Below, one piece after another: positions 3,650 to 38,536 of a stretch of DNA of 64,000 nt. Positions within the stretch are counted from its first letter, which is position 1, and every line of letters starts with the position of its first letter. The DNA comes from Psilocybe azurescens (Eukaryota > Basidiomycota > Agaricomycetes > Agaricales > Agrocybaceae), in contig JAJIRX010000884.1 in assembly GCA_023853785.1 (NCBI GenBank), forward strand, positions 1-64,000, read 5' to 3'. The notes beneath the pieces were generated by a model. That model made no database searches. It was not told the DNA's origin and was given only the letters and a program-made list of their open reading frames with translations. Position numbers and translations under genes: made by a program.

Positions 3650-5510
3650 AACCATTCTGAGCTTACAATTCAGTGGTGAGATACAGAGGCCCTTATTTTT
3701 GCGATTGTTATCTGTAATAAACTAGTACATTATACTAGTGAAGGGTAGGTGATACGCCAGACTATTAGGCTTTGAGGCTTTACTTCCTAGTGGGCCAACA
3801 AGAGTAATAGACCTTACAAACTAACTAAGGTGTAGTGTGGCCTATTAATCAGTGCTACAAATCAAAGACTACCTTTAGTTTCCTACACAGCTATCAAAGC
3901 AACCCTAACCGAGCATCCAAGCGATCGCCCGCTCCATTGATCATACTATTAGTCCCATGCAAAGAGGAAACTCTTAAGAAATGACCTTGGCTCTTACAAG
4001 GGGTAACACCCACCAGTGTCTTACCAAGTGATCGCCAAGTGATGAAAACCTTATTAATTAGCAAAAGCGATTACTGTGTCCAGGCCTCACAAAGGCTGTT
4101 CACTAAATTAGGCGAATCAACCGCTCGGGGATCAGGCATCACTGCGCCACACAGGTGATTGCCCCACGGACCGAATGTATTGGCAATTGAAATCTTGTGT
4201 ACAACTCAGCATATGGCAGTCTACTAGATCCGACTATAAAAACTTGTAATTTGCAATGCAGTCAATGTGAGTGAGTGATCGCCCAGCCAGCGATCGCCAC
4301 ACGATACTAGAGGTGACTTGCCTCATGATAAGGGCACCTGCTGTTCCAGGAGGTCCTAAACCAATAGCAACTGTGCTTGGGAACCTTGGTAGGGTTTCCT
4401 AGGAAATATACCCCTAAGCAATCTAGTCCTGACATGCCTTAGCTGCAAGCCATCTGATAAAATAAGTCGGGTGATCGCTACCCAAGAAGGCACTGCCGCA
4501 TGGACAACAATGTTATCTTCAAATAAGCGCCGTAGCCCAGGCAAACTAGTACTTTCCACTATTATAATTGGTGCAGCAAAGGCTAGGCAGCACGCGGTCC
4601 ATTTCCTTCCTTTTCTCTTAGTCTCTTTCAATTATCACAAGCCAAAGTATCTATTTAGTCTATAAAAACAGCCCTGTATCTTAGAATAGGAACCAAGTAA
4701 TTTACACCCCAGATTTGATATCAGAATTTACTCTGAATAAGAATTCTAGTGTTAACACTTTGAGGACTAGTGATTTGTGTGATAAGAGATCGAACACTGC
4801 AGTTCACCTTAAGCAATTAGGCGCTACCTGGTTTCGTGAGCAATCGCCATTGTGATATTCAACGTCAGGTCTATTAGACTTGATAAGCAGGCTTTATAAG
4901 TCATCCGTGGACTGCCCTGGGGATTGTTAAGTACGGATTGGAACCCTATACAACTAGCGATTGCTCATAGTAACTAGGGACGACTGTCAGAGAACTCTGA
5001 CTGTTCAGGACATTGCCTATAGTAAGACTGCCCTGGGGATTATTAAGTACGGGTGGGAACCCTATAAAGGCTAGTGATTGCTCATAGTAACTAGGGACGA
5101 CTGTCAGAGAAATCCGACTGTTTTCAGGACGTTGCCTATAGTAAACTAAGGACTGTGGACTAGTGTGCCCAGTTGCTTATAGGAACCAAGGATCTACTAC
5201 GTGTTAATACGGGTGATTGCTTATAGTGTTTGATAAAGTTTGAGTTTGGGTTTTATAAAGAGAACTGTTAAGTGTCCCGTGTACACTCGCCCCCAAAAGC
5301 GCATCCCCCTGATATTGGTGATCGCCCTCATAGAGAGATCGCCCTTACTATTCAAGTGCCTTGTGTGTACTAGCCTGTAAAAGTGTTCTCTAGCTACTAG
5401 TGATCACCCCAGAGTGATTGTCTAAGTCTGCACTCTGCTAAAACTAGTTATTGTAATAAGCCTTACGAGCTTACCCTCCCAGATCGAACTGATCAATATA
5501 AATATTTGAT
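3650..5510. repeat. GATCGCC/GATTGC-rich region with a 116-bp tandem duplication
   Basis: The hexamer GATCGC and its variant GATTGC recur more than ten times (for example near 3933, 4030, 4150, 4285, 4300, 4470, 4960, 5080, 5213, 5320, 5338), usually as GTGATCGCC. A direct tandem duplication is present: unit one runs about 4910-5025 and unit two about 5026-5144, both beginning GACTGCCCTGGGGATT. No coding frame is convincing. The texture suggests noncoding element DNA, perhaps the untranslated or long-terminal part of the element whose ORF follows. Confidence 0.5.
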
Positions 5511-7804: not shown

Positions 7805-8310
7805 GATAGCTACTGATGAGCCTATATGTTACGACAAGTCTTTTTCTTTTTCCTTTTCTCTTTTCTTTTTCTTTTCTTTTCCTTTTCTTTGTCATCCTTC
7901 ACATCATTGATACATCATCGTATGTTCTGATGAACTTTGCTTTCCATCATATCTACGAAACTCCATCACATCTCTGATGGACTTTCACTTCTATCTTTTA
8001 TGATACATCTTTTGATGAACATTTGATCTGTTTCTTCTATTCTTATATACATCTGTTGATGAACATTCAATCTCGTTTCAACTAGCTGTACAGTTCGTAG
8101 TATTTATACCAGGAAAGATCCACTGTATTCTTTAGCTAGTTCTTGAGAATCCAACCTGCTTAACCTGCTCAACTTGAACTTGAACTTGTTCTTGTAAACT
8201 ATTGGTGGTCAGATTATGCACACTGCGTGATTCTAACTTGAGATCATAACACTATAAAGGCAAAATAGCTACCTTGGATATCCCTCCAAGGCTATTTAGC
8301 TAGTATCACC
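7805..8310 (+). ncRNA. Hammerhead ribozyme, copy 2, split and probably inactive
   Basis: CTGATGA is at 7813-7819, followed by GCC of stem II. The matching GGC is at 8259-8261, beyond the insertion. After removal of the insertion, loop II is again TATAAA. Stem II is GCC/GGC where copy 1 has GTC/GAC. Stem III is ATAG/CTAT plus CCTTGG/CCAAGG where copy 1 has ATG/CAT plus ACTTTG/CAAAGT. These are paired, compensatory differences. The G12 of the GAAA element is A here (GGC then AAAA), and the loop II insertion adds 425 nt, so this copy is unlikely to cleave. Confidence 0.65.
7827..8251 (+). mobile_element. Solo LTR (425 bp) with 5-bp target duplication CTATA
   Basis: The insertion begins TGTTA and ends TAACA, the TG..CA inverted dinucleotide context of LTR retrotransposons. 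It is flanked by CTATA at 7822-7826 and CTATA at 8252-8256. A long pyrimidine tract (7840-7890), repeated TGATGAAC segments and a TATTTATACC promoter-like box near 8100 lie inside. No internal retroelement genes are present, so it is a solo LTR left by recombination. The element class (copia or gypsy) cannot be told from the LTR alone. Confidence 0.8.
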
Positions 8311-8374: not shown

Positions 8375-9085
8375 CAATGTAACTTCCCTATGTGGTGGCC
8401 TTATCATTCTTCAAAATGTTGCGCCGGATGCAATGACTTGACGCTGGTCTGACAGTAGTTAAAACAAACATTATAACTTTGCTCAAACTTATTTGTATCT
8501 AGAGTTGACGGTCCAGATCCCCCGAAACTTTCACTATTGAATACAGTGGGCCTGGTGCATAAGCAGTGGTGGTCGGTTGGGGGTGGATGGGGAGAGTGAC
8601 TACGGGACTTGTCACGCTATGATAGGTGAGTCCGCCGAACAGCCCGGCGTACAGTCCGGCACACAGTTCGGGGCGGACTCTCCCAGATCCCCTCGCTTGA
8701 GCGTGAGCTCACGAAAATAAACTCTTCCTCGTCAGCCGGCAGACATTCTTGAGCAGTAAACATGGAGGGAAGCTCACTACTCCGGTATATGCTCTTGTCC
8801 CTGAATACTTATGAAGGATAGGAGTAACCAGACTTGAGCTCACCGTATTTAGCAAGAAGCACCCCACAGCACGTTATTCATAAAGACAGCAAGATAGACC
8901 CATTATATTGCCTGTCTTCTACAAGTCTAGAAGATTCTGTTCATAGCATCTTTGCCGCAAGGTGGTCACGAACTCGATTATTATCGTCCACCAACGGCTC
9001 TGCCCAATGGTAGAAGAGCTAATTCTTGCCCTAGGACGTTATCAGGAAGACAAATGACAGAGTGGCGTGAGTAATGGCCTAGATC
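8375..9085. other. No gene supported; intergenic
   Basis: No coherent coding frame with splice sites is seen. A GTCCGGC/GTTCGG-rich segment near 8625-8690 resembles part of 25080-25170, probably another dispersed repeat fragment. Confidence 0.4.
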
Positions 9086-9086
9086 A

Positions 9087-9094
9087 TATATATA
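9087..9094 (+). promoter_or_regulatory. TATA-like box upstream of the micro-exon gene
   Basis: TATATATA lies 127 nt before the predicted start codon at 9221. It is the only strong TATA-like run in the upstream 300 bp. Position and orientation fit, but promoter function is an inference. Confidence 0.3.
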
Positions 9095-9170
9095 CCCCAT
9101 CGATTCACTTGATCGAGTTGTGTCCCACTCATCTCTTTTCATCGCCTCAATATCAGACCACATATACGTG

Positions 9171-9216
9171 GTGAGATACCTATCCTCCGTTCAATGACTC
9201 CTGATTCATATCATAG
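9171..9216 (+). other. Probable 5' UTR intron of the micro-exon gene
   Basis: A 46-nt segment begins GTGAGA and ends CATAG, with CTGAT as a plausible branch site. It stops four nucleotides before the predicted ATG (context AAAGATGG). Length and signals match the introns inside the gene. Confidence 0.45.
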
Positions 9217-9220
9217 AAAG

Positions 9221-12200
9221 ATGGACGAAACTTTAGAAACCCAAATCCAAAGATTGGAAGAGAAGGTTACCGGTGATACTCTTGCGTGTTGACCTGCTTC
9301 TGATGATTCTTTGCGCTTGAAGCTTGTACGTCGGAGTATGTGCGAATCATGCCTTATCTTTTACTCAGTCCGTGGACCTTTGGCCTTCAGAAAGTGCGTC
9401 GCTCAGGCGAACACATTGCAATGTCATTTTGACTCGGGTAATATAACAAACCCATTACCACAGCAAGTGAGTGTCCTGCAACCCCTAGAAAAATAACAAT
9501 GTCATAACTTCGAGAAGATGGTACGCCATCGTACATTTTGGTTCACATATATAGCAGAATTAATGGGAGTATATCTCACGTATCGTTTGTAGGAGGTAAA
9601 GTTTTTTATTCGACGAACCAAAGCCAACTTCTGACGATCATCTGACAGCCTGTAAGTGCTGAACACAGTTTTGTCTTGAGAGAAACCGATTGATCCTGAT
9701 TATGACGGGTGCCTCATTTACCTGTCCGTAGCGTGTAAGTCTCTGCTACATCGCACATGTCCGGCACTGAGTATTATCTAGGCCGTGAGTTCTAGACATA
9801 TTAGGATGACTGGTTGAAGATCTAATAGAAACACCGGGGTGGTAAAGCTATTTGACCTAGAGGTAAACAGTATAAAACTAGCTTACAACACAGCTAATTA
9901 AAATCTCACGTTCAATGACACAAAGAAGGTGGGCTATCTTGCTATGTGTGCCAATGAAGAAGACCATGTAACTTCATCCAACGCACGTTGACAGGTTGTG
10001 AGTCATATTAAGATCGCTTACCAGAAAAAACATCAATTTGATATAACACCCCACGGTCAATAGATGGTACGCCGCGCTATGCAATTACGAAGACGGGCGA
10101 AGGCTTACTAAATACATTTAAGGGCCATTTTGGAGAACAGAATGTGAGGCAAATGATGAATAAGGAAGGAAACACGACATTAATGTGTGCCCACATAATA
10201 CTATCCACAGGAGGTAAGTAAAGTCCAGGATTGATTGGCAGACAAGTCATTGATCTCTTTTCTATACATTCTCCTCAGCAGGATGTAGATCTCGTCTTGC
10301 AATAACTAAGAATTGCGAAATTGATCATGTGACCGCCAATTAACCTCCATAGAACGTGAGTTACGTCTTGAAATAATTGAGAAATGCGACACCGATAATA
10401 TACCCAACATTTCGCATCTATAGATCGTAAGAGACGTTCAGAATTGAATGAGAAATGCAACTTTGACTATCTACCAGCGCGTGAGTCCCGTCTTGAAATG
10501 ACGGAGAAGTGATTCTTCTATTCTTTACCCGCTATCGTCCACAGAAAGTAAGTCGCATGCCAAATTTACTAAGAAATATGATATCGAGTATCTGCCAGGA
10601 TGTGAATCACGCCTTGACATGATGGAGAAATGCAATACTGATCTCTTGCCCACCCATTCTCATTCATAGCTTGTGAGTCACATCATAAATGGACCGACAA
10701 ATACTTAATTCATGTATTCCTTAACCGTAATCTTCCGCAGAAAGTAGGTCGCACTCTAAATTGACTAAGAAAGGCGACATTGAATCGCTGCTAGGACGTG
10801 AGTCGTATCTTGAAACGATGGAGAAATGCGATCCCGATCTCTTGCCTAACTATTCTCATGCATAGCTTGTAAGTTAAATTGTGAATGGACAAATGGGTGG
10901 TTCATCTATTCCTCACCCGTTATTTTCCGCAGCTCGTAAGTCGCACCATAAGTTGACTCAGAAATGCGACATTGACTACCAGCCAGGATGTGAGTCGCGT
11001 CTTGAAATGACGGAGGAAGGCAATACTGATCTCTTGACTGCCCACTCCCATTCATAGCTTGTAAGTTGCATCATGAATGGATTGACAAAGGCGTGATTGA
11101 GCAATTCCTTACCAATTCTCTTCCGCAGGACGTAAGTGGCATTCGACACCGACAGATAAATGTGGTATTGACCTAGTCCCTACCCATTCTATTCCGTAGG
11201 AAGTAAGTCACATTCAATACTTACAGAGAAATGTGGTATTGACCAATTCCCTACCCATTCTCTTGTGCAGATCGTAAGTCGCACCCTAAACAGACTGTGA
11301 ATGCGACACCGACTATCTTCCAGCGCGTGAGTTACGTCGTGAAACGACAGAATAATGTGGCATTGACCTATTCTATTATTCCGCAGGAAGTAAGTCGCAT
11401 TCTACACAGACAGAGAAATGCGGTATTAACCGTTCCCTACCCATTCTCTTCCACAGAAAGTATGTCGCATTATACACTAACAGAGAAATGTGGTATTGAC
11501 CTATTCTTTACCTATTCTCTTCTGCAGCTCGTAAGTCGCACCCTAAACAGACTGTGAATGCGAGATTGACTATCTGCCAGCATGTGAGTAGCGTCTTGAA
11601 ATGACAGATAAGTGTGGTATTGACCTTTTAACTACCGATTCCCTTCGGCAGGAAGTAAGTCGCATTCTACACAGACAGAGAAATGTGGTATTGACCGATT
11701 CCCTACCCATTCTCTTCTGCAGCTCGTAAGTCGTACGCTAAACTGAATGTGAATGGGACACTGACTATCTGCCAGCGCGTGAGTTGCGTCTTGAAATGAC
11801 AGATAAATGTGGCATTCTTATTCACTACCCATTCCCTTCCGCAGAAAGTATATCGCATTCTACACTGACAGTAAAATGTGGTATTGACCTATTACCTACC
11901 CATTCTCTTCCGCAGAAAGTAAGTCGCACCCTAAACAGACTGTGAATGCGACGCTGACTTTCTACAAGCGCGTGCGTTGTGTCTAGAAATGACAGCAAAA
12001 TGTGGTATTGACTGAATCCCTACCCATTGTCTTCCGCAGGAAGTAAGTCGTATCCTAAACTGACAGTGAATGCGACACTGATCATCTGCCAGGGCGTGAG
12101 TCGCGTGTTGAAATGAAAGAAAAATGTGGTACTGAGCGATTCCCTACCTATCCTCTACCGCAGGAAGTAAGTCGTACCCTAAAATGACTGTGCATGCGAC

Positions 12201-15200
12201 ACTGACTATCCGCCAGCGCGTGAGTCGTGTTTTAAAATGACAGATAAATGTGGTATTGACCTATTCCCTACCCATTCTCTTCCACAGAAAGTAAGTCGCA
12301 TTCTACACTAACAGAGAAATGTGGTATTGACCTATTCCTTAACAATTCTCTTCTGTAGCTTGTAAGTCGCAACCTAAACAGACTGTGAATGCGAGATTGA
12401 CTATCTGCCAGCGCGTGAGTCGCGCCTTGGAATGACAGCAAAATGTGGTATTGACATATTCACTACCCATTCTTTTCCGCAGGAAGTAAGTCGCATTCTA
12501 CACTGACAGCGAAATGTGGTATTGACCTATTCCTTACCCATTCCCTTCCGCAGAAAGTATATCGCATTCTACACTGACAGTAAAATGTGGTATTGACCTA
12601 TTACCTACCCATTCTCTTCCGCAGAAAGTAAGTCGCACCCTAAACAGACTGTGAATGCGACGCTGACTTTCTACAAGCGCGTGAGTTGTGTCTAGAAATG
12701 ACAGCAAAATGTGGTATTGACTGATTCCCTACCCATTGTCTTCTGCAGGAAGTAAGTCGTATCCTAAACTGACAGTGAATGCGACACTGACCATCTGCCA
12801 GGGGGTGAGTCGCATGTTGAAATGAAAGAAAAATGTGGTACTGAGCGATTCCCTACCTATTCTCTTCCGTAGGAAGTAAGTCGTACCCTAAACTGACTGT
12901 GAATGTGAAACTGACTATCTGCCAGCGCGTGAGTCGCATCTTGAAATGACCGAATAATGTGGTATTGACCTATTCCCTACCTATTCTCTTCCGCAGGAAG
13001 TGAATCGCATTCTACGCTGACAGCAAAATGTGGTATTGACCTATTCCCTACCCATTCTCTTCTGCAGTTCGTAAGTCGCACCCTAAACTTACTGTGAATG
13101 CAACACTGACTATTTGCCAGGCCGTGAGTCGCGTGTCGAAATGACAGCAAAATGTGGTATTGACCTATTCACTACCCATTCCCTTCGGTAGGAAGTAAGT
13201 CTCAAGCTACACCGACAGAGAAATGCGGTATTGATCTATTCCCTACCCATTCTCTTCCACAGAAAGTAAGTCGCATTCTACACTGACAGAGAAATGTGGT
13301 ATTGACCTATTCCCTACCCATTCTCTTCTGCAGTTCGTAAGTCGTACCCTAAACTGACTGTGAACACAACACTGACTATCTGCCAGCGCGTGAGTAGTGT
13401 CCTGAGATGACAGATAAATGTAGTATTGACCTATTCTTTACCCATTCTCTTCCGCAGGTCGTAAGTCGCACCCTCAACTGACTGTGAATGCGACACTGAC
13501 TATTTGCCAGCGCGTGAGTCGCGTCTTGGAATGACAGCAAAATGTGGTATTGACCTATTCACTACCCATTCTCTTCCGCAGGAAGTAAGTCGCATTCTAC
13601 ACTGACAGCGAAATGTGGTATTGACCTATTCCCCACCAATTCTCTTCCACAGAAAGTATGTCACATTCTACACTGACAGAGAAATATGGTATTGACCTAT
13701 TCCCTACCCATTCTCTTCTGCAGTTCGTAAGTTGTACCCTATGCTGACTGTGAACGCAACACTGACTATCTTCCAGCGCGTGAGTAGTGTCCTGAAATGA
13801 CAAATACATGTAGTATTGACCTATTCTCTACCCATTCTCTTCCGCAGGAAGTAAGTCGCATTCTACACCGACAGAGAAATGTGATATTGACCTATTCCTT
13901 ACCCATTCTCTTCCACAGACAGTATGTCGCATTCTACACTGACAGAGAAATGTAGTATTGACCTATTCCCTACCCGTTCTCTTCCGCAGGTCGTAAGTCG
14001 CACCCTAAACTGACTGTGAATGCGACACTCACTATCTGCCAGCGCGTGAGTCGCTTCTTGGAATGACGGCAAAATGTGATATTGACCTATTCACCATCGA
14101 TTCCCTTCGGCAGGAAGTAAGTCGCATTCTACACTGACAGAAACATGTGGTATTGACCTATTCCCTACCCATTCTCTTCCGCAGATCGTAAGTCGCATTC
14201 TATACTGACAGACAAATGTGGTATTGACATATTCTCTACCCATTCTCTTCCGCAGGTCGTAAGTCACATACTAAACTGACTGTGAATGCGACACTCACTA
14301 TCTGCCAGCGCGTGAGTCGCGTGTTGGAATGGCAGAAAAATGTGGTATTGACCGATTCCCTACCCATTCTCTTCGGCAGGAAGTCAGTCGCATTTTATAC
14401 TGACAGTAAAATGTGGTATTGACCTACTACCTACCCATCCTCTTCCGCAGAATGTAAGTCGTACCCTAAACTGACTGTAAATGCGGCACTGACCATCTGC
14501 CAGGGCGTAAGTCGCATCTTGAAATGACCGAATAATGTGGTATTGACCTATTGCCTACCCATTCTCTTCTGCAGATCGTAAGTCGCACCCTAAACTGACT
14601 GTGAATGCGACACTCACTATCTGCCAGCGCGTGAGTCGCGTCTTGAAATGACCGAATAATGTGGTATTGACCTATTTCCTACCCATTCTCTTCTGCAGGA
14701 AGTAAGTCCCGTTCTACAATGACAGAGAAATGTGGTATTGACCTATTCCCTACCCATTCTCTTCTGCAGGAAGTAAGTCGCATTCTATACTGATAGGGAA
14801 ATGTGGTATTGACCTATTCTCTACCCATTCTGTTATGCAGATCGTAAGTCGCACCCTAAAACGACTGTGAATGCGACACTGACTATCTGCCAGCGTGTGA
14901 GTCGCGTCTTGAAATGACAGAATGCTGTGGTATTGACCGATTCCTTACCCATTCTCTTCCGCAGGCAGTAAGTCGTACCCTAAACTGACAGTGAATGCGA
15001 CACTAACTATTTTCCAGCGTGTGAGTCATGTCTTGAAATGACAGTAAAGTACAATGTTGTTCTTTGACCCACTCATACTCATTCTCAGCTTGTGAGTCGC
15101 GTTTGAAATGACGGAGAAGTGATTTATCCATTTCTTATCCGTTATCTTCCGCAGAAAGTAAGTCACGCCCTAAAACAATTGAGACATGTGACATTGAATC

Positions 15201-18200
15201 CCTGCCAGAATGTGAATCGCGTCTTGAAATGACGGAGAAAGGCAATAACGATCTCTTACCCACCCATTCTCATTCATAGCTTGTAAGTTGCATCCTCAAT
15301 GGAATGACAAATGCGTGATTTAGCAATTCCCTACCCATTCTCTTCCGCAGGAAGTAAGTCGCATTATACACTGACAGAGAAATGTGGTATTGAACTATTC
15401 CCTACCCATTCTCTTCCGCAGAAAGTAAGTCGCACCTAACTGATTATGAAATGTGACATTGAATATCTACCAGCGCGTAAGTCGCGTCTTGTAGTTTACT
15501 GAGAAGTCATTCATTTGTTCATTACCCGTTATCTTCCGCAGCTCGTAAGTCGCACCCTAAATTGGCTAAGAAAAGGGACATTAACTATTTACTAGGATGT
15601 GAATCGCGTCTTGACATGAGGGAGAAATGCAATACTGATCTCTTGCCCACCTATTCTCATTCATAGCTTGTGAGTTATATCGTAAATGGACTGACGAATA
15701 CGTAATTCATCTATTCATACACCGTTATCTTCCACAGAAAGTAGGTCGCACCCTAAATTGACCAAGAAATGTGAAATTGACTCCCTGCCAGGAAGTGAGT
15801 CGCTTTTTGAAATGATGGATAAATGCAATCCTGACCTCTTAATCACTCATTCTTATTCATAGCTTGTAAGTTAAATTGTGAATGGACAAATAGGTGGTTC
15901 GTCTATTTCTTACCCGTTATTTTCCGCAGCTCGTAAGTCGCACCATAAATTGACTCAGAAATGTGACATTGGCTACCCCCAGGATGTGAGTCGTGTCTTG
16001 AAACGACGGAGAAATGCAATACTGATCTCTTGTCCACCCATTCTCATTCATAGCTTGTAAGTTTCATCACCAATGGATTGACCAATGCGTGATTCATCTT
16101 TTCCATACCCATTCTCCTCTGCAGAATGTAAGTCGTTCTACACTGACAGGGGAATGTTGTATTGACCTATTCCCTACCCATCCTCATCTGCAGGAAGTAA
16201 GTCGTAACCTAAACTGTCTATGAAATGTGACATTGACAGTCTACCAGCGCGTAAGTCGCATCTTGAAATGAAGGAGAAATGCACATTGATCTCTTGCCCA
16301 CCCATTCGCATTCATAGCTTGTAAGTTAAATTGTGAATGGACAAATGGGTGGTTCATTTATTCCTTATACGTTATCTTCCGCAGAAAGTAGGTCGCACCC
16401 TAACCTCACTATGAAATGTGACATTGACTATCTGCCAGCGCGTGAGTCGTCTTCTGAAATGACGCAGACATGCGATACTGATCTCTTAGCCACTCATACT
16501 CATTCACAGCTTGTGAGTCGCGTCTTGAAATGACGGAGATGTTATTCATCTATTTCTTACCCGTTATCTCCTGTAGAATGTAAGTGGCATGCTAAATTGA
16601 CTAAGATATACGACATTGACTCCCTGCCAGGATGTGAGTCCCGTCTTGAAACGACGGAGAATTGCGATACTCATCTCTTGCCCACCCATTCTCTTTCATA
16701 GCTTGTAAGTTACATCGCGAATGGACTGGCAAATTCGTCATTCACCTTTTCCGTACCCATTCTCTTCCCCAGGACGCAAGTCATATCGTACATTTGCTGA
16801 CACACGTCGTATTCATGTTGCTTCCACCCGTTTTCTTGCACAGAACGTATGTCGCATCTCAATTTAATTTGCAGTGCGATAGTAGTCCCTGGCCAATCCA
16901 ATCCCATTCTCATAGATTGTGCGTTTTGTCCTTCGTTGATTCAAAAATAGCCCATTGACTCTGTTTTCACCTCACTCGTTTCTCTAAACCGCAGGTTGTA
17001 TGTTCTCACCTTGATTAATTACCGTTAACCCTCCCTCAATTTCTTCACTATTTGGCTCACAGAACGTACCACCATCTTCTCTACCATGTCTTTTCCAAAA
17101 AATGATCATATTTTCTTTCTCCAGCATGTACGTCCCCTTAATCACTCATCCTACCATCTAATTTTTTAGCTTGTGAGATTTCAAACAATCTATATATAGC
17201 CCTCTAATGATTTTCACATCAAGTAAGTACAACGGTTTATTATTTGTCGTCGTATTGCTCATTTTCCACTAGAATGTTTGTCGTTTCCCCAGCGCTCTCG
17301 TACATAACTAATCTTATGAAATTGTCGATATTAGCAATTCCCAGCTGGTATGCCGTGGTCCAATTTCATACTCTAACGCATCTTGAAATTGCTTTTGTTC
17401 AGGATCAGGTGCCATTCTCTTACCAACGTGCCATAATTCAATGTTTTGATTCATTCTACCCTAAACTGCTTGGAATATTCTAGGCTGTTTGTTTTCTTTT
17501 CATTTGTGGCTCCTTTTCATTGACATCTTTGCGTCCTTACAGAAGGTTTGATTCGTGGGCCACTCATCTCGTACTTTACCTCTAATTGTTTTCCCCACGC
17601 CCCTATAATGCGTCATGCGTCCTGTATGCTTGCAGTACGACGATGTAGGCAATACATTGCATCCATCGCTCTCAAAACTGACCCTAACTTAATTACAGGA
17701 GATTGTGAGGTTCTCTGTGACATAATTTTAATACACGACTAATCCGCACATCTCTATAGGATGTACGTTCATCATTTGACTTGCAGGATCTGTTTTTTCA
17801 AACTTGTCTCTTACCTGTTCTATAGATTGTGTGTGGTTATATGCTTAGGACCCAACTACACACTAACATATCTTTAGATCGTATGTTGTCCGGGAGCTTT
17901 GATTTAATGGCTTGTTTTCATTTATTCCTTCTTAGAAAGTAAGTAGTCCAATATTCCTATACATGTCAAACTGAAGTATTTCTATAGCTTGTGGGTCGCG
18001 TGTACCGATGTTATTATGCTCGCAGTCAGTTGAATGTTGGTTTAATTTATATCAGGCTGTGAGTAATACAACCGATCGAGCAGGGTATCATCATTATGAC
18101 ATTCGCTCTCGTTTCTGCACTTGTCAGATTGTATGTCACTCCTGATTCATTATCCCAACCTGAGTCCGTTTATGGGAATAGAGTGTAAGAGAGTCTATGC

Positions 18201-18644
18201 CTCCAAATAATTACTCTCTGATGATGATGTTCTCGGCGATGGGGCCCTGTAGATGGTACAGCAGCCAGAATTACCATTGCTAAGTTTGATACTAATAATT
18301 CCCATTCTCTTAGGAAGTATGCTCGTTCAAATCTTACCTAGCTCATTCATTTTCCTATACTGAGCTTCCCGCTTGTGCTCCCGTGTTTTAGATCGTGGGT
18401 ACTTGTATCTCAAAATGATATCTTATTTTGCTGACCATATTTCTGCTACGTCTCTTAGCTCGTACGCATTATAGCCTCTTCGAATGATCGCAGCACTTAG
18501 CCTACGATCAAATGAATATCAGAACGTACGGACTTTGGTTCACAAGATGCTTCACACCGTCCATTAATTTATGTGTTGTAGCGCGAATGCAGTGACAAGT
18601 TAAATGCGGCTGCGCGAGAAGGGTGGTCGAACGACGCCGTGTAA
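9221..18644 (+). CDS. Gene with 138 single-codon exons, predicted 180-aa charged coiled-coil-like protein
   Basis: Exon 1 (9221-9265) encodes MDETLETQIQRLEEK and ends before GTTACC. From there to 18581, acceptor AG and donor GT (mostly GTAAGT or GTGAGT) flank only 3 nt at 138 places, 6 nt at 17403 and 17699, and 9 nt at 17636. The last exon (18582-18644) begins RECSDKLNAAAREGW and ends in TAA. All 143 exons total 543 nt, a multiple of three, with no internal stop. Introns are mostly 42-80 nt (one longer interval at 9785-9925), each usually with a TGAC/TNAY branch-like site 10-30 nt before AG. The product would be about half Asp/Glu/Lys/Arg, with one Pro and one Cys, rich in Leu/Ile at 3-4 spacing: a charged helix or coiled coil. 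Function is unknown. The alternative is a noncoding minisatellite that mimics splice sites; the constant three-nucleotide spacing in diverged flanks argues against it. Transcript reads would settle it. Confidence 0.75.
9266..10480 (+). other. 5' micro-exon segment with mostly unique introns
   Basis: Single-codon exons start at 9323, 9391, 9464, 9518, 9593, 9649, 9732, 9782, 9926, 9995, 10064, 10141, 10211, 10282, 10353, 10424 and 10478. They encode L K Q M E P R A, then K V M N E D N I R. The introns up to about 10210 share no obvious sequence with each other (47-80 nt), yet the exon is always 3 nt. Between 9785 and 9925 the model is weakest: one 141-nt intron, or two introns of 78 and 63 nt meeting at AG|GT (9862/9863) with no exon between them. 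The acceptors of the exons at 9323, 9518 and 9926 end in AAG rather than YAG and are less certain. Confidence 0.65.
10481..16772 (+). repeat. Core tandem array of intron+codon units (periods 71 and 53 bp)
   Basis: About ninety-seven units, each an intron followed by a 3-nt exon. Most introns are 68 nt (GTAAGTCGCATTCTACACTG... to CTCTTCCGCAG, or a GTGAGTCGCGTCTTG form) or 50-51 nt (GTAAGTCGCACCCTAAACTG... to ATCTGCCAG). The 50-nt type is usually followed by CGC (Arg) or, near the ends, GAT/GAC (Asp). The 68-nt types are followed by GAA, AAA, CTC, CTT, ATC, GTC or TTC. Representative exon starts are 10545, 11058, 11528, 12040, 12554, 13068, 13582, 14114, 14628, 15155, 15667, 16194 and 16702. 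Intron lengths are typically 3n+2, so retention shifts frame while exon skipping does not. The triplets vary freely while the flanks are conserved. Confidence 0.9.
11779..12996 (+). repeat. 709-bp higher-order duplication inside the array
   Basis: Exons at 11845, 11916, 11969, 12040, 12093, 12164 and 12217 correspond one to one to those at 12554, 12625, 12678, 12749, 12802, 12873 and 12926, each offset by 709 bp. They carry nearly identical introns, including the rare GTATATCGC donor and the unusual TCTACAAG acceptor. The encoded string KKREGER occurs twice as a result, with GGC changed to GGG. This is a recent block duplication of about ten units. Confidence 0.85.
16773..18581 (+). other. 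3' micro-exon segment with unique introns and a few 6- and 9-nt exons
   Basis: Exons start at 16773, 16844, 16916, 16995, 17063, 17125, 17170, 17220, 17273, 17345, 17403 (6 nt), 17484, 17543, 17636 (9 nt), 17699 (6 nt), 17760, 17826, 17878, 17936, 17988, 18056, 18128, 18182, 18253, 18314, 18392, 18459 and 18523. Apart from the first two or three, the introns are unrelated in sequence. Canonical CTAAC branch sites are visible at several (for example before 17699 and 17878). The donor at 16776 is GC (GCAAGT), a known minor class. The acceptor before 17220 reads CACAT instead of CACAG, a probable single-base change or error. The exons at 18182 and 18253 are less certain than the others. Confidence 0.65.
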
Positions 18645-19500
18645 ATCATTTCCAATTTGGTGAGTTATAAGTCAGGGTTAAATTTACATGATTGGTTCTC
18701 ATCAGTTAATATCAGTTGTGTGTGCCAGGGTGTACGGAAACTTTGCAAGTGCACACCTCGTCACGCTGTCTGATCGGTAAATTGACCGATTGATTCAGGG
18801 AGCTGGATACCGAACGAAGGAATTTTTGAGAGGGATATCAGATATTGGCGTGAGGGATCGCATTGACTATCACTTAGTCATATATGGCTAGGCAGTGTGG
18901 AGGGAAGCCGTTACGGATTTGCAATTTATCTGCGTTCTTTTGGAATAACTCTAAATATCGAACAAGGGAAATCTTTCAAGTGGTAGTAATACTTTTTGAC
19001 AGCGGGATGTTCGTCTATACTTCTCATGAGTGAATAAGATAATTCGAGACTCACAACACTGGTGTAGGGCTTGTATTATTTGTGTATTATGGAGTTCGAG
19101 AATCTTGCACAAACCCGATGAATCATGGGACCGAGCTTGCCTGAGAACATTATTTCCAGTAGATTAGTACACCGACCCAGGCATATTGGCAATGTGGACG
19201 AGTCGGAGTACTTCAAAGCGCAAGAGATGAGACAACAAGTTCTATAGCGGAATCGTCGTTCGGACTTGAGTCGGGTCGCCTCGGGTCACCGGACATGCTG
19301 ACACATGATTATGTATGACGATCCGGTACACTTCTCACACGTTGATTATCTTTCTTTTTATCTTATCTTCTTATTTCGACTTCACTTCGTTGTCTCCTGA
19401 TACATGATCTCGTCCCTTTCACTCTCTGTCCCTTATCCCTGAAACCCTTCCTTAGATACCTTATGTTTCCTTTCCTTTAGTACCACACAACACGTACTAA
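18645..19500. other. No gene supported; 3' flank of the micro-exon gene
   Basis: No further AG-N3-GT series, coding frame or RNA gene is seen. A GGTGAGTT at 18658 could start a 3' UTR intron, but nothing confirms it. Confidence 0.4.
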
Positions 19501-19503
19501 CCC

Positions 19504-20640
19504 TCGTATTACAATGCACCATTCAACCAAAAAGTACCATGGACGGCAGTAACACTCCTTATCTTCCTGGTGTACTCGCATGTGTCCATATACGGTGTCA
19601 TATCGTCCGACGTCCGACCTTCTCTACTGAATGCGCGTCATCCTTGCCTCCAACCGTGGAACACTCATGGAACCCGGTATCCGGCCTATTATTACTTCGG
19701 GAATGATCAAGCAACTTTTGGCGGGCACCAATCTTATCGATGTGGACTTCAGTCTTAAGGGATCGTGGTTGTTGAGTGGTGCTCCGAAACGTGAGTGTCG
19801 TGTCGTGTCGTGTCGTGTACATTCCAATCCTCCATCCGCACCCTTATCTTCCTTTTCTCCAATCTCTTCATCATCCATATATGCACACGTGCGAAGAACA
19901 CACACCGACTAATATATGCTAGTGTTCGCTTTCATCATCTCCCTCGGCCAAGCCACAGTCTACGTGCTCACAGGGCTCTACGGCCAGCCGTCCGACCTCG
20001 GCGCCGGGGTCTGCCTCTTGCTCATCATCTAGTTCATTGTCACCGCACTGGTCGCGAATGATCCCCTGGGACAAACTCTTGCAGAAGGGGTACAGTCTTG
20101 GATTGGGCATCCACTTGTTCATTGCGACGAACACCTGCGAGTCGATCGTGTGGAAAGTGTTCTCGCCTATCACTGCGAACATCGGCAGAGTTGACAAGCA
20201 TTATGTTCGTTGTGTAGCGGATGTCGGAGACTCGGTTCTCGCGGAACTTGTTGGATAAGGTTTTAGGTGTTTGGGAGGTTAGTTTTACATTTTTATATTA
20301 TATATATATTTAACGATGTTGGGATTTTGGCCGACATGTTTTCACCGTTCTCTACCTACTTGTTCCATTTCGTCCCCTTCTGCCTCCAGCACCTCGAAGA
20401 CTGCCCGCAACTTAGCGCCACAGGTGGTATCACATACTACATGTCACCACCACACACGATCAAAGAACCCGTCCTGGACCCAATCCACACGGCGATCTAC
20501 ATCGTCTTCATGCTCAGTGCGTGCGCACTGTTTAGCAAGACATTGATTGAGATCTCTGGGAGCGGGCCAAGGGATGTGGCGAAGCAGCTGAAAGACGGCC
20601 AAGTGAGCTTTGTGTATCTCTGCATGAGGAAAGATTCTCA
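19504..20640 (+). pseudogene. SEC61 alpha-like pseudogene, copy A (5'-truncated)
   Basis: The Sec61 alpha subunit is the channel of the ER protein-conducting translocon. Recognisable blocks are NQKVPWTAVTLLIFLV (about 19527-19575), [54 protein letters not shown] (about 19960-20010), and [16 protein letters not shown] with FMLSACALFSKT..EISGSG (20430-20580). The reading frame breaks near 19600, an in-frame TAG follows the LLII block near 20030, the middle of the gene is scrambled, and the C-terminal exon is missing. Exon 1 is absent. Clearly non-functional. Confidence 0.8.
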
Positions 20641-35914: not shown

Positions 35915-38536
35915 ATGCTTGAACATTTAAACAATGTCCTGATAAATGGAGGAACGTATATCGAGTACCATTATGGTCAATCGTCCGAAGGTATGTGGCT
36001 CCATCGGTCTCTTTCAATTATCACTACATACAATCAATACATGAGTACAGCCATCAAACGATTGCTAGAGGCATCATCTCTCGGGGCGCTCCATAACTCT
36101 GGCGAGAGATTCGACCCTCCCAAATGCCACCCAAACACTCGTACCGCCGTCCTTAAGAAGCTCATGGATTGGTTTATTGGGGAGTTTGGATGGGATGACC
36201 TCGTGCTTTGGCTGTATGGTCCGGCAGGCGCAGGGGAAATCTGCGATTGCCCAGACCTTTGCAGAACTATGTGCCAAGGAGAATGTCCTTCTCGCCAGTT
36301 TCTTTTTCTCTAGGTCAGATCCCAGGCGAAACAACGAAAGAACTTTTGTGGCAACGTTGTCCTATCAATTATGGTTTCATGTTACTGAATCTCGGCCAAT
36401 AGTCGAAGCAGCTATCAACAACAATCCAGCAATATTTCAGCTCAATTTTGATACCCAATTTCGCACATTGTTCCTCGATCCTCTTCTTCAGCTTTCCAGT
36501 TCCGGGCGCTTCACATCTGGGAAGCCGTTTCCTAACCTAATCGTCATAGATGGTCTCGACGAATGCGATGGAGCGGACGTTCAGGACACTATTTTAAACA
36601 TCATCTCAAATGCACTCCAACATCATCGCTCGGCTCTCCCCTTCAGAATTCTCATTGCCAGCCGACCAGAGTATCATCTCACCATATCATTTTCTGTTGC
36701 CCCTCTGCACGCTCTGACTTCTCGTCTCGCACTCGACGACACATACCGACCAGACGACGATATAAGACTATATCTGACAGACTCGTTTCGTGACATACAA
36801 AAGACACACATCATGCGTGCTCATCTTCCGGATTCATGGCCATCGGAGGAAGACATCGCCAAATTGGTCGCCAAATCATCCGGTCAATTCATCTATGCAA
36901 CAACGGTTATTAGATATGTGTCCGCTCCTCGACGTAATCCACTTGATCGCCTTAGCGTCATTCAAGGCATCCTTCCGGTCAATGACGATAGGCCATATGC
37001 GCAACTTGACGCTCTATATATCAATATTCTTTCTGATGTGGAAGATATTAAAGCAGTTTTGCGAATTCTAGGGATGGCTTTTATATTGACAAATAATACA
37101 AATCATAACATTGGACCTATGGCAGTCAATGATCTGGAGAAGTTTATGCGACTTACCCCGGGGACTGTTCAGCTCCTACTCATTGACCTACTGTCCGTTG
37201 TGGATGCCTCAGATCACAACAAGCCCATAAAATTTCTCCATGCCTCGTTCAGTGACTTTCTCATCGATCCATCCCGGTCTTGCCAATTTTTCATAGATCC
37301 TAGTAAAAGACATGAGGACGCTGCCCATTTCTGTATTTCTGCCATTGGATGTAAGCATTGATCGCTCTCTTACAAATTCATTTTTGAGCTTCAGTTTATT
37401 TCATATATAGTACTAGACATGGCTACACCTCTGCCAAGACTTGCGTACCAGTCACTCTTGAGTCATCTTCGACTGGCAGGTCCTCTGCAAGACAATGCCA
37501 CTCTTCGGGAGAAGCTTTTGAAGGTGCCCTATGTTCAGCACTGGAAATTTTATGCCCTCAGCTTGATTGATAAACCTTTAATGTATAATGAGCCTCCGCC
37601 TGAGGATCCTGGAATGTTTCTAGAATTTCTGCAAACGTCGGTACGTCTACTTATTTTAAAGATATTGGAAACAACATATTTTGACTCCAAATCAAGGAAT
37701 TTAGGCAAACGGAGGAGCTTTATCTCCACCATCGAAGTATCTTGGATCAAAAGTTACGCGACTCTTTGGCATTGATTCCCATGAGCCCTTGTCTGGATTT
37801 TTGGACTACCGTCTGTGCCGGCGGGATGCTCAAACACTATCCAGAAGTCCCTTTGCTAGCATTTGGCATTCTTTCATCCTCATCGACACCCGACGTCTCG
37901 GTTGTTGCGCCAGGTTTCCTCGTTTCTGCTTTTCTCGATCGAATCGAGGCAGGCAGTGAGCGGCGACGATATCCATGGAAGGGAGCTTATCGCATAACTG
38001 GTAACCTGTATCCACGGATGGTGAAGGAATTTCTAAATGATCCGTCACGGGCAGGAGCACACGCTATAGATCAATCAACGTATACTACGGCTGCGGTATT
38101 CGCCGCGGAGTATGCAATCAGCCCGTGGGATGTGACAAAGTCCATTTCTTCGCACATACTTAGGGGCGAACAATGGAACTTTATATGGGAGGCTTTTACA
38201 TTCATGCTGTCGAAGGCCGGGTACTCGGCCGAGCTAGTCAATTTGCTCAGCCAAGAGAACCTTACCTTCAATCTAGGAAGACCGTACAACAATGTGCGCC
38301 ATCGGGTACAGACTTTGTTTGGAGCAGTCCGCGACTATTTGCTGAAATTCAAATGGTCGATTCCTTCAGCATTTAAAATTGCCATCAACTGGGCAGAATT
38401 TGAAAGAGACAACATTAGTGATTGTTTCACGGCCGAAGACTTAGATGATGATGGGAGCAAATGGCGAGTTTTTTACATCGATGAATCCATTCTTCCGAGC
38501 GACGAGGATACACGGGAGCCAGCCGGGCGAAAGTGA
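35915..38536 (+). CDS. NACHT-type STAND NTPase (mushroom NLR-like), one-base insertion in Walker A
   Basis: Exons 35915-35990, 36051-37350, 37411-37640 and 37697-38536 are joined by introns of 60, 60 and 56 nt. With one G removed from the GGGG run at 36233-36236 they give exactly 815 codons (814 aa). The order is a short N-terminal helix (MLEHLNNVLINGGTYIEYHYG), the linker SGERFDPPKCHPNTR, Walker A GPAGAGKS split by the frameshift (about 36219-36243), FFFSRSDPRRN, Walker B LIVIDGLDEC (36537-36566), RILIASRPE, a helical domain, and an all-helical C terminus without visible repeats. STAND NTPases of this kind act as ligand-gated switches, in fungi often in non-self recognition or regulated cell death. 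As written the gene cannot make the full protein. A sequencing error or a real mutation are both possible. Confidence 0.8.

What the first reader, a model, noticed from the sequence alone, without database searches (positions are those of the whole stretch)
9221..18644. A gene whose exons are almost all single codons
The sequence shows 141 consecutive AG-N(3k)-GT junctions between an ATG-led 45-nt exon and a stop-ended 63-nt exon; 138 of the internal exons are exactly 3 nt. Spliced, they give an open frame of 180 codons from 9.4 kb of DNA with about 142 introns. Micro-exon genes are known in some lineages (for example schistosomes), but I know of no described gene built nearly entirely of one-codon exons. 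If transcribed and spliced as read, this is a new extreme of gene architecture.
Basis: partly seen in the sequence, partly recalled or inferred. Interest (0 to 1): 0.98.

Follow-up and report, generated by a model that had tools for sequence, protein, structure and literature searches.

The report
A gene of single-codon exons
In what is probably a mushroom-type fungus, a 9.4-kb stretch carries 142 intron-like segments in a row with, in 137 of the 141 gaps between them, exactly one codon; it would likely be spliced one codon at a time into a predicted 184-residue protein, an extreme of gene architecture that no RNA evidence has yet tested.

Summary
Between an ATG-led 45-nt exon (9221-9265) and a stop-ended 63-nt exon (18582-18644) runs a chain of 142 introns (141 GT-AG, one GC-AG, 42-100 nt) and 141 tiny exons; my model has 137 of 141 at exactly 3 nt. 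A stricter first model found no complete path. Chance is excluded: 0 of 300 shuffles of either outer part give any full path. With exon length free (1-30 nt) and no frame demanded, 130 of 141 exons are still 3 nt.

The middle (about 10.4-16.8 kb) is a diverged tandem array whose unit is one intron plus one codon; the outer parts mostly show no match to it yet keep AG-NNN-GT. Searches find the array only at this locus; three decayed end fragments lie elsewhere. One keeps exon letters (2 of 63 differ, against 129 of 801 non-coding, p=0.002); the other two do not.

Best reading: a genuine protein-coding gene grown by duplication of intron-plus-codon units, spliced by intron definition into a charged, probably helical protein. 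Transcription and splicing are untested. Introners, schistosome MEGs and aphid bicycle genes were considered and do not fit.

The parts
9087..9094 (+). TATA-box-like run TATATATA, about 130 nt upstream of the ATG
   Evidence: Read in the sequence; also present in the C291 fragment alignment. Promoter function is inferred.
9221..9265 (+). Exon 1, 45 nt, MDETLETQIQRLEEK
   Evidence: Two differences of 45 in the C291 fragment, both synonymous by reading the codons.
9266..10438 (+). 5' part of the microexon chain; AG-NNN-GT junctions kept
   Evidence: shuffles; residues. Only its last stretch (from about 10411) matches the array in the DNA search; units from 10285 on still align with array units.
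9848..9862 (+). 15-nt exon LFDLE with a weak acceptor; alternative readings exist
   Evidence: replaced by other exons when stops or any length are allowed.
10439..16775 (+). Central tandem array: units of one intron (mostly about 50 or 68 nt) plus one codon, arranged in higher-order repeats
   Evidence: Tandem repeats of period 71, 124, 195, 266 and 390; self-comparison; 98 junctions with 3-nt exons.
16776..16843 (+). The single GC-AG intron (donor GCAAGT)
16776..18581 (+). 3' part of the chain; beyond about 16860 its introns show no match to the array, AG-NNN-GT kept
17173..17272 (+). 100-nt intron in the chosen model; holds an AG-TAA-GT block (TAA at 17224-17226) that would be a stop if used as an exon
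   Evidence: the model that allows stops still skips it, the free-length model puts a 23-nt exon at 17200 instead.
18582..18644 (+). Last exon, 63 nt, RECSDKLNAAAREGWSNDAV and stop; not conserved in the C884 and C254 fragments
   Evidence: 16 and 19 of 63 letters differ.

Best explanation
From 9221 to 18644 the sequence holds a chain of 142 intron-like segments separated by 141 tiny blocks, 137 of them a single codon, and this is likely a genuine gene that would be spliced one codon at a time into an mRNA for a predicted 184-residue, highly charged, probably helical protein. Shown by the sequence: the chain, the splice-site letters, the phase-0 one-codon spacing, a frame open from ATG to stop in the model, and a tandem array in the middle whose repeat unit is one intron plus one codon. 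Inferred: transcription from the TATA-like site near 9087, and removal of each 42-100-nt intron by intron definition (pairing across the intron, as recalled for short-intron fungi). A 3-nt exon should not hold splicing factors for both neighbouring introns at once, so removal would have to be stepwise, each codon joined to the growing exon before the next intron is handled. Inferred: the gene lengthened by unequal exchange or slippage between intron-plus-codon units. Units start and end in phase 0, so adding, losing or skipping whole units would not shift the frame; protein length could change in steps of single residues. What the protein does is not known; my best guess is a structural or interaction helix whose length may vary.
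For: Chain with 137 of 141 exons at 3 nt; 130 of 141 with length and frame free. 0 of 300 shuffles of each outer part contain a full path. All 98 array exons of the model are 3 nt with no doubled intron between them. In 36 disjoint nearest unit pairs AG+GT differ at 0 of 144 sites, donor positions +3 to +6 at 7 of 144, the rest of the flanks at 319 of 2952. In the three duplicated fragments 7 of 26 junctions are broken. Exon letters in the C291 fragment: 2 of 63 differ against 129 of 801 non-coding, p=0.0018; without CpG sites 1 of 61 against 94 of 733, p=0.003; both exon differences are synonymous (read). Single codons are enriched in helix formers over 820 background AG-NNN-GT triplets: 15 of 16 (5' part, p=0.001), 90 of 98 (array, p=4e-15, units not independent), 21 of 23 (3' part, p=3e-4). 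The repeat unit matches this locus only (26 of 26 listed). 137 of 142 introns would break the frame or bring a stop if retained.
Against: No transcript, protein or orthologue was available. A stricter model found no complete path. The spliced protein finds no relative at E up to 10, no Pfam family and no intron-poor copy in the genome; its one match is its own last exon. Inside the array, codons diverge faster than introns: 22 of 108 exon letters against 319 of 2952, 13 amino-acid changes to 3 silent. The C884 and C254 fragments show no exon conservation (p=0.51 and 0.93) and their last exon differs more than introns. With a narrower set of helix formers (A,E,K,R,L,M,Q) the 3' part is not enriched (10 of 23, p=0.30) and the 5' part only weakly (10 of 16, p=0.03). 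Helical periodicity is weak (whole protein p=0.10). A possible stop block lies at 17224-17226. At 99% efficiency per intron only 24% of transcripts would be fully spliced, at 99.5% 49%.
Confidence: 0.7

Rival explanations
1. Non-coding intron satellite: the array is a tandem repeat of intron-derived units that sits inside one large intron or is not transcribed; AG-NNN-GT is kept because units are homogenised, not because each codon is used.
For: The middle is a tandem array, codons in it diverge faster than introns, and there is no RNA evidence. A unit rich in decoy splice sites could be removed from the first donor to the last acceptor.
Against: The outer parts, which mostly show no match to the array, keep single-codon spacing. 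No stop codon occurs among the 98 array codons, also when the model allows stops, where about 5% are expected (no-stop probability 0.006 if independent, which repeats are not). Exon letters are conserved in the C291 fragment.
Confidence: 0.13
2. Decaying pseudogene: a once-working microexon gene whose fragments were scattered and which no longer makes a protein.
For: Three decayed fragments elsewhere, a possible stop block at 17224-17226, a GC donor at 16776, 6 AAG acceptors of 142, and no complete path under a stricter model.
Against: A full path with an open frame still exists over 141 exons, while 7 of 26 junctions are broken in the fragments, 5 of them distinct since C884 and C254 share two.
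Confidence: 0.08
3. Splice-choice generator: the gene is real, but each transcript joins a different subset of the one-codon exons, so the product is a population of helices of different length, and no single 184-residue protein is made.
For: Exons of the model are phase 0, so skipping would keep the frame. Donor motifs are alike (GTAAGT or GTGAGT in 92 of 142 introns), so pairing of a donor with a later acceptor seems easy.
Against: Nothing tested; short-intron fungi are recalled to splice mainly by intron definition, which favours pairing with the nearest acceptor.
Confidence: 0.08

Closest known systems
Aphid bicycle and megacycle genes (PMC9168663, passages read)
   Same: A gene with more than 100 small exons in which internal duplications repeat the exon-intron pattern (M. 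sacchari megacycle: 118 exons, about 100 kb, 2092 aa).
   Different: Exons there are on average far longer (118 exons for 2092 aa); [quoted passage not shown] they are putative effectors of insects. Here phase 0, mostly 3 nt, a fungus, one Cys in the predicted protein.
Schistosome micro-exon genes (MEGs; recalled, not read here)
   Same: Many symmetric tiny exons in a row, so skipping keeps the frame.
   Different: Recalled: exons of about 6-36 nt, a signal peptide, secreted products. Here exons are mostly one codon and exon 1 is hydrophilic by inspection.
Introner-like elements of fungi (PMC4457414, passages read)
   Same: Similar spliceosomal introns in many copies.
   Different: Those are near-identical and sit in unrelated genes across the genome; here all 26 listed matches of the repeat unit lie in this one locus.
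Intron gain by repeat expansion, Cryptococcus gene CNN00420 (PMC2395259, passages read)
   Same: Intron-containing DNA repeats that expand within a gene and create new introns, in a basidiomycete (lineage recalled).
   Different: Two gained introns there; here 98 array junctions with one-codon exons.
Single tiny exons: the 1-nt exon of Arabidopsis APC11 (PMC4674806, abstract and introduction shown in the outline) and a microexon of Trichoderma Xlr2 (PMC11121469, passages read)
   Same: Show that extremely short exons can be spliced efficiently in a plant, and that microexons occur in filamentous fungi.
   Different: One such exon described per gene; here 137.

Membership tests
Introner / introner-like elements | Near-identical intron copies inserted in many unrelated genes | tested here: not met
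   The repeat unit matches only this locus, 26 of 26 listed matches; the 15050-16760 query likewise, 9 of 9. The tool scores best candidates only, so a rare distant copy is not excluded.
Aphid bicycle / megacycle genes | Internal exons almost all phase 2 | tested here: not met
   Internal exons of the model are phase 0; feature taken from PMC9168663.
Aphid bicycle / megacycle genes | Many unusually small internal exons | tested here: met
   141 internal exons, 137 of 3 nt.
Schistosome micro-exon genes (features recalled) | Runs of symmetric microexons | tested here: met
   All 141 exons are multiples of 3 in the model, which demands this; 130 of 141 are 3 nt when it is not demanded.
Schistosome micro-exon genes (features recalled) | N-terminal signal peptide | tested here: not met
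   By inspection only: MDETLETQIQRLEEK has no hydrophobic stretch; no predictor run.
Protein-coding spliceosomal gene | Canonical splice signals and open frame from ATG to stop | tested here: met
   141 GT-AG and 1 GC-AG introns, YAG acceptor in 136 of 142, +5 G in 129 of 142, CDS 555 nt. GT/GC, AG and frame are demanded by the model; a stricter version found no complete path.
Protein-coding spliceosomal gene | Purifying selection on exons | tested here: inconclusive
   Seen in the C291 fragment (p=0.002), not in C884 or C254 and not among array units.
Protein-coding spliceosomal gene | Spliced transcript | not testable with these tools
   No RNA data.

The most novel reading that the evidence does not exclude
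A gene of a new architecture: a coding satellite whose repeat unit is one intron plus one codon. DNA repeat turnover writes a protein one residue at a time, exon skipping cannot break the frame, and about 142 splicing events per mRNA make its output a built-in gauge of splicing capacity and a source of helices of graded length.
Probability: 0.3. Interest if true: 0.98.

Novelty: new variant of a known kind. Interest (0 to 1): 0.9.

Why it matters
If spliced as read, this sets a new limit for how finely a gene can be cut up: most codons would be their own exon. It would be a natural test of intron definition without usable exons, of how accurate splicing can be over 142 steps, and of how tandem repeats can create introns and protein length together. 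[quoted passage not shown] In the listings of my ten paper searches I saw no gene of this kind (open-licence PMC papers only; three searches returned more papers than were listed).

Tried and rejected
A first gene model with GT donors only, introns 38-95 nt and exons up to 12 nt found no complete path; it was loosened.

Intron hairpins bringing donor and branch point together: many array introns have a GTCGCA...TGCGAC-like pairing, but folding against shuffles gave mean z -0.32 for 97 array introns, 0.13 and 0.12 for the 18 and 27 outer ones and -0.06 for control segments; rejected.

Amphipathic or coiled-coil periodicity: residues 1-38 p=0.027 and 60-120 p=0.035, but 1-60 p=0.46, 120-184 p=0.43, 3' stretch p=0.67, whole p=0.10; not claimed.

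Dispersed introner: not supported.

Intron-poor paralogue or parent gene: none found. Protein relatives: 618 candidates shared words, none scored E up to 10.

No collection of eukaryote genomes is offered, so orthologues could not be looked for in DNA.
Full report
What was claimed.

The chain is there. A path search over donors and acceptors (introns 36-100 nt, exons of 3k nt up to 15, GT or GCAAG donors, no stops) gives a complete chain: 141 internal exons (137 of 3 nt, two of 6, one of 9, one of 15), 142 introns, 555 nt of CDS, 184 residues. A stricter first version (GT only, introns 38-95 nt, exons up to 12 nt) gave no complete path; the chain needs one GC donor (16776), one 100-nt intron (17173-17272) and one 15-nt exon (9848-9862). 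Introns are 42-100 nt, median 67.5; 141 begin GT and one GC; 136 end YAG and 6 AAG; +5 is G in 129 and +6 is T in 122. The base before the donor is G in only 12 of 142, so donors rest on their intron side.

It is not chance and not forced by the model. At fixed exon length 3 the longest run is 105; outside the locus it is 4. The outer parts have runs of 8 and 14, each reached in 0 of 2000 shuffles; 0 of 300 shuffles of each part have any full path. In the genome searches only the ends of these parts next to the array matched the array (from about 10411, and up to about 16860), though units from 10285 still align with it. If exons may be 1-30 nt, stops are allowed and no frame is demanded, 130 of 141 are still 3 nt: 14 of 17, 95 of 98 and 21 of 26 in the three parts.

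Anatomy. The middle is a tandem array (periods 71, 124, 195, 266, 390). A unit is one intron, mostly of about 50 or 68 nt, plus one codon. Higher-order copies lie 707 bp apart (88% identical over 1114 positions, 17 exons inside) and one 760-bp block recurs about 5 kb away (10452-11209 and 15448-16203, 84%, 12 exons inside). Single duplications therefore probably added many introns and residues together, which I take as the way the gene grew. The outer parts would be older units whose introns have drifted beyond recognition; this is inference.

Elsewhere in the genome. The host assembly is 70.4 Mb in 937 contigs. A neighbouring NACHT-type ORF is nearest to Psilocybe cyanescens proteins (77% and 80% identity for the best two of 4660 hits, 120 listed) and the genome has hydrophobin domains (24 matches), so it is probably an Agaricales fungus close to Psilocybe; this is inferred. 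The array was found only here (26 of 26 matches; 9 of 9; best candidates only). The 5' end (8781-9712) recurs at C291, and the 3' end (from 17882) at C884 and C254. In the 20 kb held around each fragment no long 3-nt chain continues: longest runs 5, 10 and 8, in or at the fragments. A 47-position junction profile run over the window and those 60 kb (124 kb, both strands) gives 119 matches with E up to 1: 114 in this locus, on the + strand, and 5 inside the three fragments. The profile was built from 45 of the junctions themselves, so its matches in the locus are partly by construction.

Signs of selection. For: exon letters in C291 differ at 2 of 63 sites against 129 of 801 non-coding ones (p=0.0018; non-CpG 1 of 61 against 94 of 733, p=0.003), and both differences are silent (read). 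Splice letters: 0 of 144 AG+GT differences in 36 nearest unit pairs against 10.8% in the rest of the flanks. This figure is helped by the chain definition, but no array junction of the model is missing. In the fragments 7 of 26 junctions are broken and one codon has become TAA; C884 and C254 share two of the breaks, so 5 are distinct, and which state is older is not known. Against: C884 and C254 show no exon conservation in their microexons (p=0.51, 0.93), their last exons differ at 16 and 19 of 63, and array codons change about twice as fast as introns with 13 replacements to 3 silent. So the protein, if made, keeps a residue class more than exact residues.

The predicted protein. Helix formers (A,E,K,R,L,M,Q,D,N,I,V) are 15 of 16, 90 of 98 and 21 of 23 of the single codons in the three parts, against 56% of 820 background AG-NNN-GT triplets (p=0.001, 4e-15, 3e-4; array units are not independent). 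With the narrower set A,E,K,R,L,M,Q they are 10 of 16 (p=0.03), 71 of 98 (p=3e-13) and 10 of 23 (p=0.30). Residues are dominated by E, L, R, K and D (30, 27, 23, 20, 17 of 184). Periodicity is weak, so coiled coil is not claimed. No family or relative was found.

How it would work. 42-100-nt introns fit intron definition. Adjacent introns share a 3-nt exon, so they should not both be bound at once; stepwise joining is the simplest scheme. 137 of 142 introns would break the frame or add a stop if kept, while skipping of a 3-nt exon leaves the frame. At 99% per step 24% of transcripts would be complete, at 99.5% 49%, at 99.9% 87%. These steps are inferred; no RNA was seen.

What is known. Bicycle and megacycle genes of aphids have many small exons, the example described having 118 exons for 2092 aa (PMC9168663, passages). 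A constitutive 1-nt exon exists in Arabidopsis; that paper gives 6 nt as the smallest constitutive and 3 nt as the smallest alternative exon known before it (PMC4674806, abstract). Repeat expansion created two introns in a Cryptococcus gene (PMC2395259, passages). Fungal introner-like elements sit in unrelated genes (PMC4457414, passages). An amylase gene transferred to basidiomycetes gained many introns (PMC3584928, abstract). A 2024 paper says that functional microexons had not been described in filamentous fungi before (PMC11121469, passages). In the listings of ten searches of the held papers I saw no gene made of one-codon exons; some searches listed 20 of 61, 20 of 45 and 12 of 14 papers, and I judged them by title and abstract start.

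Verdict. It is an extreme variant of the microexon gene, and not a member of the families tested (introners, bicycle genes, MEGs).

Noticed in passing
8000-8252: End of a repeat present in many copies (39 of 41 listed matches, 92-96% identical; 40 of 555 candidates scored), probably an LTR or other mobile element, upstream of the gene.
   Followed up: partly
4910-5144: Two copies of a 117-bp tandem repeat; by eye its reverse complement also appears downstream of the break in the C291 fragment.
   Followed up: no
L023 (C291:27237-27847): In the C291 fragment about half of CpG sites differ from the window against 12-14% of other non-coding sites, as expected from decay of methylated CpG.
   Followed up: partly
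18727-20000: Similarity to C884 and C254 continues in pieces downstream of the gene, so the duplications took in more than the gene end.
   Followed up: no
36069-37358: ORF with an NPHP3_N/NACHT-type domain; its best two database matches, 77% and 80% identical, are Psilocybe cyanescens proteins.
   Followed up: partly
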